Below the pieces are notes generated by a model. That model searched no databases and was not told where the DNA came from. It worked only from the letters and a program-made list of their open reading frames with translations. A DNA stretch of 52,326 nt, taken from positions 1 through 52,326 of the forward strand of contig NZ_NRHC01000025.1 in NCBI RefSeq assembly GCF_003585885.1. The letters run 5' to 3'. This document shows positions 28,590 to 32,646 of this stretch, in pieces. This stretch comes from Psittacicella hinzii (GTDB taxonomy: Bacteria > Pseudomonadota > Gammaproteobacteria > Enterobacterales > Psittacicellaceae). The first letter of the stretch is position 1. Every line of letters begins with the position of its first letter. The translations under genes were made by a program, and so were the position numbers.

Positions 28590-29168
28590 ATGACAGAACA
28601 AACAAAAAAAGGTCGCCTTTTTATTATTTCAGCTCCTTCAGGTGCTGGGAAAAGTACTTTAATTAACAAATTATTAAACTCTAGCTTTAAATCAAAGTAC
28701 TACCTTTCTATTTCTCATACAACTCGTCCAGTTAGACCCGGAGAAGTTCACGGGGTACATTACTATTTTACAAACATAGAAAACTTTGAGCATTTAATAC
28801 AACAAGATGAGTTTTTAGAATATGCTGAAGTATTTGGTAATTACTACGGAACTTCAAAAAGAATTATTCGAGAAAAGCTTGATCAAGGAATCAACATCTT
28901 GCTAGATATTGATTGGCAAGGGGCGAGAAATGTGCGTAAACAATTTCCAGAAGCAATTTCAATTTTTATTTTACCACCTAGCTTAGAAGAGCTTCAGAAG
29001 AGACTTTTAAATCGTCAAACAGATTCATTAGATGTTATTGCTCGTCGTATGGAAAAAGCTGAGAATGAAATGGCTCATAAAGACGAATATAACTATGAAA
29101 TTTTAAATGATGATTTAGATCATGCTTTCAAACAATTTGTTGATATATTAGAATCATCTTCAAAATAA
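28590..29168 (+). CDS. gmk: guanylate kinase
   Basis: A 192-residue enzyme that converts GMP to GDP. It shows the P-loop ISAPSGAGKSTL, the GMP-binding motifs SHTTRPVRPGEVHGVHYYF and EYAEVFGNYYGTS, and LDIDWQGARNVRKQFP. The ATG at 28590 is chosen because it gives the normal family N-terminus; a TTG at 28554 would add 12 unmatched residues. In E. coli and Haemophilus gmk is followed by rpoZ, and the same holds here. The two are separated by 126 nt holding a probable rpoZ promoter and a structured leader. Confidence 0.97.
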   Translation: MTEQTKKGRLFIISAPSGAGKSTLINKLLNSSFKSKYYLSISHTTRPVRPGEVHGVHYYFTNIENFEHLIQQDEFLEYAEVFGNYYGTSKRIIREKLDQGINILLDIDWQGARNVRKQFPEAISIFILPPSLEELQKRLLNRQTDSLDVIARRMEKAENEMAHKDEYNYEILNDDLDHAFKQFVDILESSSK

Positions 29169-29294: not shown

Positions 29295-29867
29295 ATGCAA
29301 GATAACAAAATAGTTAACATTACACAAGCTTTAAAAAAAATTCCTAACCGTTTTGAGTTAATTGCTGTAGCAGCTCGTCGTGCTAGACAAATTCAAGAGT
29401 ACGAAGCTGCAGTTGCAAAAGCAGAATCAAATTACAGAAATACTTCAACTTTAGTACTAGCTCAAGCTCGTGTAAAAAATGGCAAGGGTGGAACAAGAGA
29501 AAGTAAAATTGAGACGCAATTAAAAGAGTTAAGAAATAATCCTATTAATCTTTTTGTTGACAACTCAATTACTAAAGATAAGCCAACAGTTGTTGCTCTT
29601 CGTGAGATTCAAGAAGGCTTTGTAAATAAAGAATACTTAGATCGTAAAGATATTTTCGATCAAATTCAAGAACATACAAGTTCATTTGAAGAAGTTGATA
29701 GCTTACTTCAGTCTACAGATGACACTTTTGATGAAGATACTTTTAGAAGTCTAAAAGATGATTTCAGAAGCTTTGCAAATGATGAAGATGAAGTAGACAC
29801 AAGTGAATTTTTTAACGTTGTAAATCCTTTCGATGAAAGTGATGAAGATTACAACGATGAAGAATAA
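29295..29867 (+). CDS. rpoZ: RNA polymerase omega subunit, enlarged with insertion and acidic tail
   Basis: A 190-residue protein, about twice the usual size of omega (about 90). The two conserved halves are clear: KKIPNRFELIAVAARRARQIQ (residues 14-34, E. coli NRFDLVLVAARRARQMQ) and KPTVVALREIQEGFVNKEYLD (96-116, E. coli [20 protein letters not shown]). Between them, where E. coli has about 14 residues, lie about 61, mostly polar and helical-looking with a basic stretch (KNGKGGTRESK). The last ~74 residues are strongly acidic. The extreme N-terminus (MQDNKIVNIT) does not match MARVT, whose residues contact ppGpp in E. coli. The gene order gmk-rpoZ supports the identity. No frameshift is seen, so the unusual form looks genuine. 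Confidence 0.85.
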   Translation: MQDNKIVNITQALKKIPNRFELIAVAARRARQIQEYEAAVAKAESNYRNTSTLVLAQARVKNGKGGTRESKIETQLKELRNNPINLFVDNSITKDKPTVVALREIQEGFVNKEYLDRKDIFDQIQEHTSSFEEVDSLLQSTDDTFDEDTFRSLKDDFRSFANDEDEVDTSEFFNVVNPFDESDEDYNDEE

Positions 29868-29900
29868 TAAAGTTAGTTAACTTTTTTTGTAATTTTAGGA

Positions 29901-29928
29901 TAGGGACCATTTTAATGGTCCTTTTTTT
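29901..29928 (+). terminator. terminator between rpoZ and recG
   Basis: GGACCATT / AATGGTCC forms a tight stem followed by TTTTTTT. It ends only 12 nt before the recG start codon. Confidence 0.88.
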
Positions 29929-29940
29929 GAATATGTAGAT

Positions 29941-32079
29941 ATGACGCAGTCGGTTTACTCAATACCTATTGAAAAAATTAAAGGGGTAACTAAGGCAAAT
30001 CTCCCTAAATTTAAAGAAAATTTAGGGATTAATAATTTAGGTGATTTGCTGATGTTTTTGCCCAGAAATTACGAAGATAGGTCTCAAATAGTTTCTTTAC
30101 CAGAGGTCATACCTGGTAATAAAGTTTGTATACGTGTCGTTGTCACAGGCAAGTATAAATCAGTAGTTGATAGATATAATTACAGACTAATAGTCAATGG
30201 TGTAGATCCAACTTCAGGTAATACAATTTTGATTGTTTTTTACCGAGCAGCAAATTATTATGATGAAAAGATTGAGGTAAACTCTGTCCACACCTTTTTT
30301 GGAATTGTGGAGTTAAATACCTATGGACAAACAGATTATAAAATTAATCACCCTGAAATAGTTACAGATGATAATTTTGTTGGTAAAAATCTCCTAACAC
30401 CAATATATCCAAGTACTGATAAATTAAAACAAGATACTATTAGGAAAGTTGTACAAAATGGTATAGCTATAGTGGAAAAAATGAGTTTACCAAATTTATT
30501 GCCTCAAAGTGGTTACCCATTAATTCCATTTCGCAAAAGTGCAGGGTCTGCAATTGAGTATCTAGATATAAATAAACTAGACTTCTTGCAAAGTCTAAAG
30601 TTTATTCACACTCCACCGAAAAATGTAAATATTCAGGATATTATTGAGAGACGTAATCCATATCTTATAAGGTTAATAGCTGAAGAAATATTGGCTAAGC
30701 AATTAACTCTAATTTCCTCGAAAAATATTTTACAAAGGGAAAAAAGCGTTGTAATCCCTCCACAATTAAATTTAGCACAAAAAGTCATTCAGGATCTACC
30801 ATATAAGCTTACTAATGCTCAAATGAAAGCCTTTCTCGATGTGGTGAATGATTTGGCAGCAAATAAACCAATGTTACGTTTAATTCAAGGTGATGTTGGA
30901 TGTGGGAAAACAATGGTTGCAGTTTTAGCCATAGCTCATATAGTTCAGTATGGGTATCAGGTTGCATTAGTTGCGCCAACGGAGATTCTCGCTTCTCAGC
31001 TTTTTGAAAATGTCAATAACGCTTTACAGGCTTACGGAGTTAAATCTGTTTTTGTTAGCGGTAAATTAGGAGCTAAGGGAAAAAGAGAGGTTGGAAATTT
31101 AATTAAAACGGGTCAAGCTAATGTTATAGTTGGCACACATGCTGTTTTCTCTGAATGGGTTGAGTATAAAAATTTAGCTATGGTTATAATCGACGAACAG
31201 CACCGTTTTGGTGTTGAACAGAGATTAGAGATTTCTACTAAGCAAAAGAATTTCAAAATTCACACTCTTATGATGAGCGCTACACCTGCACCTCGAAGTT
31301 TAGCTATGACCATTTACGCTAACCTTGATTTATCAATCATAGATGAGCTACCGCCAGGAAGGAGTAAAGTTGAAACTTTTTTAATAAGTAAGAATGAAAA
31401 AGTAAAACTATTTGGACGTATTAGAAAAGTAATTCACGAGGAAAGAAGACAAGTTTACTGGGTGTGTGTTCTAATAGAAGAGAATGAAAATTATCAAGCT
31501 ACGAGTGCATTAGAAACTTTATCTGAACTAAGGTCATTTATGCCAGAGGTTAGAATTGGTTTAATCCACGGTAAATTGAAAGAGCAAGAAAAAGCTGAAA
31601 TTATGCAAGCCTTTAAAGAGCAAAAACTTGATCTTTTAGTCGCAACAACGGTTATCGAGGTTGGAGTAAATGTGCCAAATGCTTCGATAATGATAATAGA
31701 AAATCCTGAAAGACTTGGATTATCACAGATCCATCAGTTAAGAGGGCGTGTAGGTCGTGGCAGTGTAAAATCTTTTTGTGGTCTTTTATATGAACCAAAA
31801 ATATCTCGTTCGACTAAAGAGAGGTTAGAGATTTTTCAGCGCACCAATGATGGCTTTGTTATTGCTGAAGAAGATATGAAGCTAAGAGGTAATGGTGACA
31901 TTGTTGGCACAAGGCAGTCTGGAGAGATGCAGTTTCAAATTTCAGATTTAGCTAAAGATAATTTAATTGCCGAAGTGCTAATTCCTTTTGCGCAAACTCT
32001 TTATGATCAAGATCCAGAGTTATCTAGACAGATAATGCGACGTTGGAATGCTAATCAAAAAGATTATGTCTTAATTTAA
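29941..32079 (+). CDS. recG: ATP-dependent DNA helicase RecG
   Basis: A 712-residue helicase that remodels stalled replication forks and Holliday junctions. An N-terminal wedge/OB domain (to about residue 260) is followed by the helicase core. Walker A is GDVGCGKT (the usual serine before GK is cysteine, which the motif allows), Walker B VIIDEQHRFGVEQR, and motif III MMSATPAPRSLAMTIYANLDLSIIDELPPGR. TVIEVGVNVPNA and HQLRGRVGRG (motif VI) complete it. Length is near the usual 690. In Haemophilus and E. coli, spoT (and trmH in E. coli) lie between rpoZ and recG; here they are absent. A strong terminator stands 12 nt before the start, so recG must be read through from upstream or use a promoter inside rpoZ. 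Confidence 0.97.
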   Translation: MTQSVYSIPIEKIKGVTKANLPKFKENLGINNLGDLLMFLPRNYEDRSQIVSLPEVIPGNKVCIRVVVTGKYKSVVDRYNYRLIVNGVDPTSGNTILIVFYRAANYYDEKIEVNSVHTFFGIVELNTYGQTDYKINHPEIVTDDNFVGKNLLTPIYPSTDKLKQDTIRKVVQNGIAIVEKMSLPNLLPQSGYPLIPFRKSAGSAIEYLDINKLDFLQSLKFIHTPPKNVNIQDIIERRNPYLIRLIAEEILAKQLTLISSKNILQREKSVVIPPQLNLAQKVIQDLPYKLTNAQMKAFLDVVNDLAANKPMLRLIQGDVGCGKTMVAVLAIAHIVQYGYQVALVAPTEILASQLFENVNNALQAYGVKSVFVSGKLGAKGKREVGNLIKTGQANVIVGTHAVFSEWVEYKNLAMVIIDEQHRFGVEQRLEISTKQKNFKIHTLMMSATPAPRSLAMTIYANLDLSIIDELPPGRSKVETFLISKNEKVKLFGRIRKVIHEERRQVYWVCVLIEENENYQATSALETLSELRSFMPEVRIGLIHGKLKEQEKAEIMQAFKEQKLDLLVATTVIEVGVNVPNASIMIIENPERLGLSQIHQLRGRVGRGSVKSFCGLLYEPKISRSTKERLEIFQRTNDGFVIAEEDMKLRGNGDIVGTRQSGEMQFQISDLAKDNLIAEVLIPFAQTLYDQDPELSRQIMRRWNANQKDYVLI

Positions 32080-32082
32080 AGT

Positions 32083-32646
32083 ATGGAACAGTTTAGTCGC
32101 TTACTAGAAAATATTATAAAAAGTAAATGCGTTGATAGTTTTACCAATGACTTAAATCAAATTCAAAAAACTTTGGAAGAGAAAGAAAATTATCTTCTAG
32201 AAGCCAAAGCAGTTGGAGTTGATTACCCTGACAGTATTACAGCCTTAATTGAAGCTAAAGATGGGGAGTTACCTAGAGTCATTGTAAACTGCCAAAAATC
32301 TATAGATGACTACTTAATAAGATTTATTAACTTAATTAATAAAGATAATAATGTAGTCTTAACTGGCTATACTTTTTTAGATCTGTCACATGATTTGAAT
32401 GTAAAAAAAGTTATTCTTTCGGAATTAACTAGAAACCAGACTATACCTTTAGGTTTATGGTTATTTAAACAACAATTTACAGCTTCAGAATTTATATTTC
32501 GTAAAAGCGGAGCTAATCAATTTATGAGGATAAGGTACTTTGATATTGATTGCTCTAAATATGTTAACTACTTCGCCACTGTAAGGTTATATCTTGTTGA
32601 AGTTTTTAATATAGATACGTTTATAAAGTACATTGAAAAAAAATAA
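32083..32646 (+). CDS. divergent chorismate lyase-like protein (UbiC family, tentative)
   Basis: A 187-residue protein starting 3 nt after the recG stop. Its second half follows the pattern of E. coli UbiC, which makes 4-hydroxybenzoate for ubiquinone. DSITALIEAKDGE parallels UbiC SVTMIREG. DDYLIRFINL parallels YWLREILL (active-site Arg76 kept). TGYTFLDLS parallels AGRTVVPVS, with the arginine changed to tyrosine. IPLGLWLFKQQFTASEFIF parallels TPLGRYLFTSSTLTRDFIE, and YLVEVFN parallels LTELFLP (catalytic Glu155 kept). The match is from reading, not a search, and overall identity is low, so UbiC function is likely but unproven. It is co-transcribed with recG and ends in the shared terminator. 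Confidence 0.55.
   Translation: MEQFSRLLENIIKSKCVDSFTNDLNQIQKTLEEKENYLLEAKAVGVDYPDSITALIEAKDGELPRVIVNCQKSIDDYLIRFINLINKDNNVVLTGYTFLDLSHDLNVKKVILSELTRNQTIPLGLWLFKQQFTASEFIFRKSGANQFMRIRYFDIDCSKYVNYFATVRLYLVEVFNIDTFIKYIEKK

What the first reader, a model, noticed from the sequence alone, without database searches (positions are those of the whole stretch)
29868..29940. spoT (and trmH) missing between rpoZ and recG, with ppGpp-contact residues of omega changed
Established: E. coli has gmk-rpoZ-spoT-trmH-recG and Haemophilus gmk-rpoZ-spoT-recG. SpoT makes and degrades ppGpp, and ppGpp site 1 includes the omega N-terminus (MARVT). Seen: only 73 nt lie between rpoZ and recG, filled by a terminator, and the omega N-terminus reads MQDNKIVNIT, where the usual Arg3 aligns with Ile6. 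Inference: this lineage may have lost or rewired ppGpp control of RNA polymerase. Both changes occurring at one locus make chance less likely.
Basis: partly seen in the sequence, partly recalled or inferred. Interest (0 to 1): 0.68.

Follow-up and report, generated by a model that had tools for sequence, protein, structure and literature searches.

The report
RNA polymerase missing one ppGpp site
In a small family of bird-associated bacteria (Psittacicella), RNA polymerase appears to have lost one of its two docking sites for the starvation signal ppGpp while keeping the enzymes that make and destroy the signal and the parts of the second site, so nature may have made an enzyme otherwise known as a laboratory mutant.

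Summary
In detail: gmk-rpoZ-recG, 73 nt between rpoZ and recG holding an intrinsic terminator, no spoT or trmH there, and an omega that starts MQDNKIVNIT instead of MARVT. The first inference is wrong: spoT is not lost. The genome (Psittacicella sp., Pasteurellales) has relA, a spoT beside recA (hydrolase intact, synthetase decayed) and dksA. The second inference holds and goes further. In all four Psittacicella genomes the beta-prime half of ppGpp site 1 is changed too: R362Q, R417K, K615D, I619A. K615 is Lys in 54 of 54 other gammaproteobacterial genomes read. Site-2 residues (beta-prime N680, K681, D684; DksA R91, L95, K98, R129, K139) are all kept. Best reading: a natural "site 1-minus, site 2-plus" polymerase, the mirror of Francisella (site 1 kept, no DksA). 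Omega also carries a net 48-residue insert, seen in no other genome examined, and DksA a long N-terminal extension with AT-hook-like motifs. spoT displacement is unrelated: three other genomes moved spoT and kept MAR. Caveats: a very long beta-prime stem branch, chance about 0.01 for beta-prime alone, no biochemistry. New variant of a known kind.

The parts
28590..29168 (+). gmk (guanylate kinase), upstream gene of the usual gmk-rpoZ block
   Evidence: ORF (TTG start 28554; the likely ATG at 28590 is inferred from protein similarity); same order in three other Psittacicella species
29295..29867 (+). rpoZ, RNA polymerase omega subunit, 190 aa
   Evidence: TIGR00690 rpoZ 55.6 bits, cut-off 23.6; PF01192; conserved in 4 species
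29295..29318 (+). omega N-terminus MQDNKIVN, where nearly all other gammaproteobacteria have MARVT (ppGpp site 1, omega half)
   Evidence: MAR[VI]T in 26/26 other genomes of the order and MAR in 40/43 class omegas read, counting one GTG start; lost in 4/4 Psittacicella
29397..29576 (+). omega residues 35-94, containing a net 48-residue insert between core helices 2 and 3, predicted helical
   Evidence: Alignments A1, A2; HMM span 294-297 nt in Psittacicella against 147-162 nt in all other genomes listed; AF2 helix 19-61 then 71-80, pLDDT about 52-74 in the insert
29742..29864 (+). acidic C-terminal part of omega
   Evidence: Sequence; rich in D/E in all four species though not alignable residue by residue
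29902..29930 (+). intrinsic terminator (9-bp stem and T run) between rpoZ and recG
29941..32079 (+). recG (ATP-dependent DNA helicase), 712 aa
   Evidence: Best NCBIfam matches are RecG models: NF008163 743.8 bits (cut-off 796), TIGR00643 639.4 (cut-off 659.4); both fall just short of the cut-off

Best explanation
Psittacicella RNA polymerase is a natural site 1-minus, site 2-plus enzyme. RelA makes ppGpp and a hydrolase-only SpoT removes it. ppGpp no longer acts in the pocket between omega and beta-prime, because the basic contacts there were replaced on both subunits (omega A2/R3; beta-prime R362Q, R417K, K615D). ppGpp should still act with DksA in the secondary channel, whose contact residues are unchanged. 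Shown here: the gene content and the residues. Inferred: that the substituted site 1 does not work and that site 2 does. Relocation of spoT next to recA is a separate, neutral-looking rearrangement.
For: Two RelA/SpoT-family proteins and one DksA in the genome; RelA keeps all ten synthetase residues checked, SpoT keeps the HD, ADRTHN and RSSGE motifs but has lost R264, H307, Q321, H338, R236, K238. beta-prime R362Q, R417K, K615D, I619A in 4/4 species. K615 is Lys in 54/54 outgroup genomes, R417 is Arg in 52/54, residue 362 is always basic. omega MAR[VI]T 26/26 in the order. Both halves of one pocket changed although the genes lie on different contigs (C81, C95), while site 2 is unchanged. Literature: site-1 contacts are omega 2-5 and beta-prime R417, K615, I619, D622, R362; K615A/R417A enzymes respond very poorly to ppGpp and an enzyme with omega delta2-5 shows only background binding (PMC7676912); the MAR motif predicts ppGpp binding at this site (PMC6912228).
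Against: beta-prime evolves fast on the Psittacicella stem (branch 1.69); 13 of 188 columns conserved at 95% or more are changed, so two of three conserved site-1 contacts by chance has P about 0.013. D622 and Y626 are kept. R417K is conservative. Nearby lysines in the omega N-terminus (K5, or K4 in P. hinzii) might partly stand in for R3. The M7 mutant with a crippled site 1 still bound ppGpp, in what the authors suggest is a non-functional mode (PMC7676912). No structure or binding assay exists.
Confidence: 0.74

Rival explanations
1. Site 1 was remodelled, not lost: the new omega N-terminus, the insert and the altered beta-prime helix form a pocket that binds ppGpp differently or binds another ligand.
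For: Part of the insert (YEAAVAKAESNYRNTSTLVLAQARVK) is invariant in four species, and D622 and Y626 of the base pocket are kept.
Against: The phosphate contacts R417 and K615 are weakened or charge-reversed, and no basic residue conserved in all four species appears in the omega N-terminus in their place. The AF2 model of the insert has low confidence and says nothing about its position on RNAP.
Confidence: 0.12
2. Direct ppGpp control of RNAP is lost altogether and ppGpp acts only on other targets (GTP-synthesis enzymes, ribosome-associated GTPases).
For: Site 1 is degraded and DksA has a long unusual N-terminal extension that could alter its use.
Against: All ppGpp-contact residues of site 2 checked in DksA and beta-prime are identical to E. 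coli in all four species, which would be hard to explain without selection.
Confidence: 0.08
3. The changes are neutral noise on a fast-evolving lineage and site 1 still works.
For: Stem branch length 1.69 in beta-prime; two other divergent genomes (G154, G166) also have R417K and no MAR.
Against: K615D occurs in none of 54 outgroups; three of the four changed conserved omega columns are residues 2, 3 and 5 (P about 0.006).
Confidence: 0.05
4. spoT and ppGpp metabolism were lost.
For: spoT is absent from its usual place.
Against: spoT and relA found elsewhere in all four genomes.
Confidence: 0.01

Closest known systems
E. coli RNAP ppGpp site 1 (omega/beta-prime) and its laboratory site-1 mutants (omega delta2-5, beta-prime K615A/R417A)
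   Same: The same residues are affected; enzymes with these changes respond little to ppGpp without DksA (PMC7676912).
   Different: Here the changes are natural, fixed in a genus, include a charge reversal K615D, and come with an omega insert.
Francisella tularensis RNAP (site 1 kept, no DksA, hence no site 2)
   Same: A gammaproteobacterium that keeps only one of the two ppGpp sites (PMC5630020, PMC9304144).
   Different: Psittacicella is the reverse: site 2 kept, site 1 degraded.
Acinetobacter/Moraxellaceae hydrolase-only SpoT
   Same: HD domain intact, synthetase motifs lost, RelA the only apparent synthetase (PMC9974481, PMC3153485).
   Different: A different lineage; two other genomes of the order (G011, G051) show partial decay too.
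Myxococcus CarD (RNAP-binding domain plus acidic stretch plus RGRP AT-hooks)
   Same: An RNAP-binding factor joined to an acidic segment and several AT-hook motifs (PMC4374960); Psittacicella DksA has that layout.
   Different: An unrelated RNAP-binding domain and the opposite order (hooks at the N-terminus); DNA binding untested.

Membership tests
RNA polymerase omega (RpoZ) | Rpb6/omega core and family profile above cut-off | tested here: met
   TIGR00690 55.6 bits, cut-off 23.6; PF01192 52 bits, cut-off 26; omega chains are the top Foldseek hits, best E 1.3e-3
ppGpp site 1 of proteobacterial RNAP | omega N-terminus MAR | tested here: not met
   MQDNK/MQDKN in 4/4 Psittacicella; MAR[VI]T in 26/26 other genomes of the order
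ppGpp site 1 of proteobacterial RNAP | beta-prime contacts R417 and K615 (phosphates) and R362 (base) | tested here: not met
   K, D and Q in 4/4 Psittacicella
ppGpp site 1 of proteobacterial RNAP | beta-prime D622 and Y626 | tested here: met
   kept
ppGpp site 1 of proteobacterial RNAP | binding of ppGpp without DksA | not testable with these tools
   needs purified enzyme
ppGpp site 2 (DksA/beta-prime) | DksA R91, L95, K98, R129, K139 and coiled-coil tip D71, D74; beta-prime N680, K681, D684 | tested here: met
   all kept in 4/4 species
SpoT hydrolase | HD motif and surrounding catalytic motifs | tested here: met
   HDTIEDT, LADRTHNMRTL, RSSGE[PK]YITHP in 4/4
SpoT synthetase | conserved synthetase residues | tested here: not met
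   R264, H307, Q321, H338, R236, K238 substituted in 4/4
RelA synthetase | conserved synthetase residues | tested here: met
   ten of ten checked residues kept in 4/4

The most novel reading that the evidence does not exclude
ppGpp control was rebuilt around site 2: site 1 was sealed on both subunits, omega gained a conserved helical module with a new partner or ligand, and DksA became a DNA-tethered, CarD-like factor through AT-hooks, so that stringent control depends on AT-rich promoter DNA.
Probability: 0.12. Interest if true: 0.8.

Novelty: new variant of a known kind. Interest (0 to 1): 0.55.

Why it matters
What site 1 is for is unsettled: it has a modest effect in E. coli yet is kept in nearly all proteobacteria. 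A genus that keeps RelA, SpoT, DksA and the site-2 residues but has lost site 1 is a natural experiment on what site 1 contributes and what replaces it. With Francisella it gives one natural example of each single-site state. The omega insert and the AT-hook-bearing DksA are testable, possibly linked novelties in the two accessory proteins that form the ppGpp sites.

Tried and rejected
Misplaced start codon hiding a MAR: rejected by the in-frame stop just upstream. Assembly error or contamination: rejected, the same states occur in three other species. spoT loss: rejected. Linkage of spoT displacement with the omega change: rejected, G014, G028 and G051 have spoT elsewhere and keep MAR. A search of genome contigs with the omega alignment returned only the three named Psittacicella species, so no further carrier of the insert was found. 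The AF2 model of omega (mean pLDDT 72, pTM 0.49) is too weak in the insert to place it on RNAP; Foldseek returned omega chains and nothing credible for the insert. A Pfam SNAD2 match (0.0066, below cut-off) in omega was judged spurious. Literature searches found no report on omega or DksA of Psittacicella or on an AT-hook DksA, but the library lacks most subscription journals.

Full report
Identity and context. The window lies in a 2.3-Mb, 162-contig genome whose three relatives in its family are Psittacicella gerlachiana, P. hinzii and P. melopsittaci; NCBI places the genus in Psittacicellaceae, Pasteurellales. Within the window gmk, rpoZ (29295-29867) and recG (29941-32079) lie in that order. 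The 73 nt between rpoZ and recG hold an intrinsic terminator. The other three species have the same order.

spoT and trmH. E. coli K-12 has gmk-rpoZ-spoT-trmH-recG. Here spoT is not lost. The genome has two long RelA/SpoT homologues: a 765-aa RelA on contig C87 and a 730-aa SpoT on C51 directly beside recA. RelA keeps all ten synthetase residues checked; SpoT keeps the hydrolase motifs but has lost most of the synthetase residues, in all four species. This is the hydrolase-only state described for Moraxellaceae (PMC9974481, PMC3153485). Two other genomes of the order, G011 and G051, also show synthetase decay. Among the 30 genomes compared, spoT lies about 1 kb from rpoZ in most, but not in the four Psittacicella nor in G014, G028 and G051; those three keep MAR, so displacement of spoT and loss of MAR are separate events. 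trmH seems truly absent: the three SpoU methylases found look like RlmB, TrmL and TrmJ (assignment by sequence features and my own knowledge).

Site 1, omega half. The N-terminus reads MQDNK(I/T)VNIT (MQDKNTANIT in P. hinzii) in all four species. In 26 other genomes spanning the families of the order it is MAR[VI]T in every case. In the class, 40 of 43 omegas read have MAR (30 of the best-scoring and 13 of the worst-scoring, one with a probable GTG start); the exceptions are G154, G166 (a 0.4-Mb genome) and G256, which has MSR. In an alignment of 19 outgroup omegas, 17 columns are conserved at 95% or more and four are changed in Psittacicella; three of these are residues 2, 3 and 5 (P about 0.006).

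Site 1, beta-prime half. Site-1 contacts are omega 2-5 and beta-prime R417, K615, I619, D622 and R362 (PMC7676912). Psittacicella beta-prime has R362Q, R417K, K615D and I619A, and keeps D622 and Y626. K615 is Lys in all 54 other genomes read (25 of the order, 29 of the class); R417 is Arg in 52 and Lys in two; residue 362 is Arg, Lys or His in all. The two with R417K are G154 and G166, the same genomes that lack MAR, which suggests that the two halves decay together. Of 188 columns conserved at 95% or more, 13 are changed, and two of the three site-1 columns among them are hit (P about 0.013). This is suggestive rather than overwhelming, because the beta-prime stem branch of the genus is very long (1.69 changes per column). 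The combined case rests on both subunits, encoded on different contigs, losing contacts of the same pocket.

Site 2. DksA is present. R91, L95, K98, R129, K139, D71, D74 and the four zinc cysteines are kept in all four species, as are beta-prime N680, K681 and D684 and, in the window's genome, K598/K599, the DksA-proximal end of the helix that runs to K615 (role of that helix from PMC7676912). Site 2 gives the main effects of ppGpp, and only site 2 activates promoters in E. coli (PMC9304144, PMC5630020).

Mechanism. The most likely state is that ppGpp acts on Psittacicella RNAP only together with DksA. In E. coli, an enzyme with omega delta2-5 shows background binding, and K615A/R417A enzymes respond very poorly (PMC7676912). 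K615D reverses charge and should be at least as damaging as K615A; this is inference.

Additional features. omega is 190 aa because of a net 48-residue insert between core helices 2 and 3 and an acidic tail. The insert holds a stretch more conserved than most of the protein (YEAAVAKAESNYRNTSTLVLAQARVK invariant). The HMM match spans 294-297 nt in Psittacicella and 147-162 nt in every other genome listed (135 in the order, 105 in the class), so the insert is not seen elsewhere in this sample. AF2 predicts that helix 2 runs on through the insert, with low confidence. DksA is 322-376 aa: its N-terminal extension has two KRGRGRPR(K/R) and one KKRGRKPK motif in each species, then an acidic stretch (Pfam AT_hook 17.4 bits, equal to its cut-off). 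The other DksA read are about 135-162 aa from the first Met. beta and beta-prime are of normal length, so extension is not general to this RNAP.

Verdict. Observation confirmed. The loss-of-spoT reading is wrong; the altered-ppGpp-site reading is right and reaches further than stated. The polymerase is a new variant of a known kind: a natural single-site enzyme, the mirror of Francisella. Function is inferred from residues only.

Noticed in passing
L041:6106-7098 (-), genome contig C134; also L131, L133, L134: DksA with a 170-225 residue N-terminal extension carrying three AT-hook-like motifs and an acidic stretch in all four Psittacicella species; layout recalls Myxococcus CarD.
   Followed up: partly
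L042:3354-5546 (-); L166 (G011); L165 (G051): SpoT with intact hydrolase and decayed synthetase residues in Psittacicella and, to differing degrees, in two other genomes of the order.
   Followed up: partly
G154 (L196, L233) and G166 (L198, L234): Two other gammaproteobacterial genomes lack the omega MAR and have beta-prime R417K and Y626A/E, but keep K615; whether they keep DksA and RelA was not tested.
   Followed up: no
window 29397-29576: omega insert with 26 consecutive residues invariant in four species, more conserved than much of the protein; function unknown.
   Followed up: partly
L040:7548-11777 (-): beta-prime has a 15-residue insertion near E. coli residue 555 and a shortened C-terminus relative to E. 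coli; the genus stem branch is very long.
   Followed up: no
window 32083-32646: 187-aa ORF directly after recG with no Pfam match.
   Followed up: no
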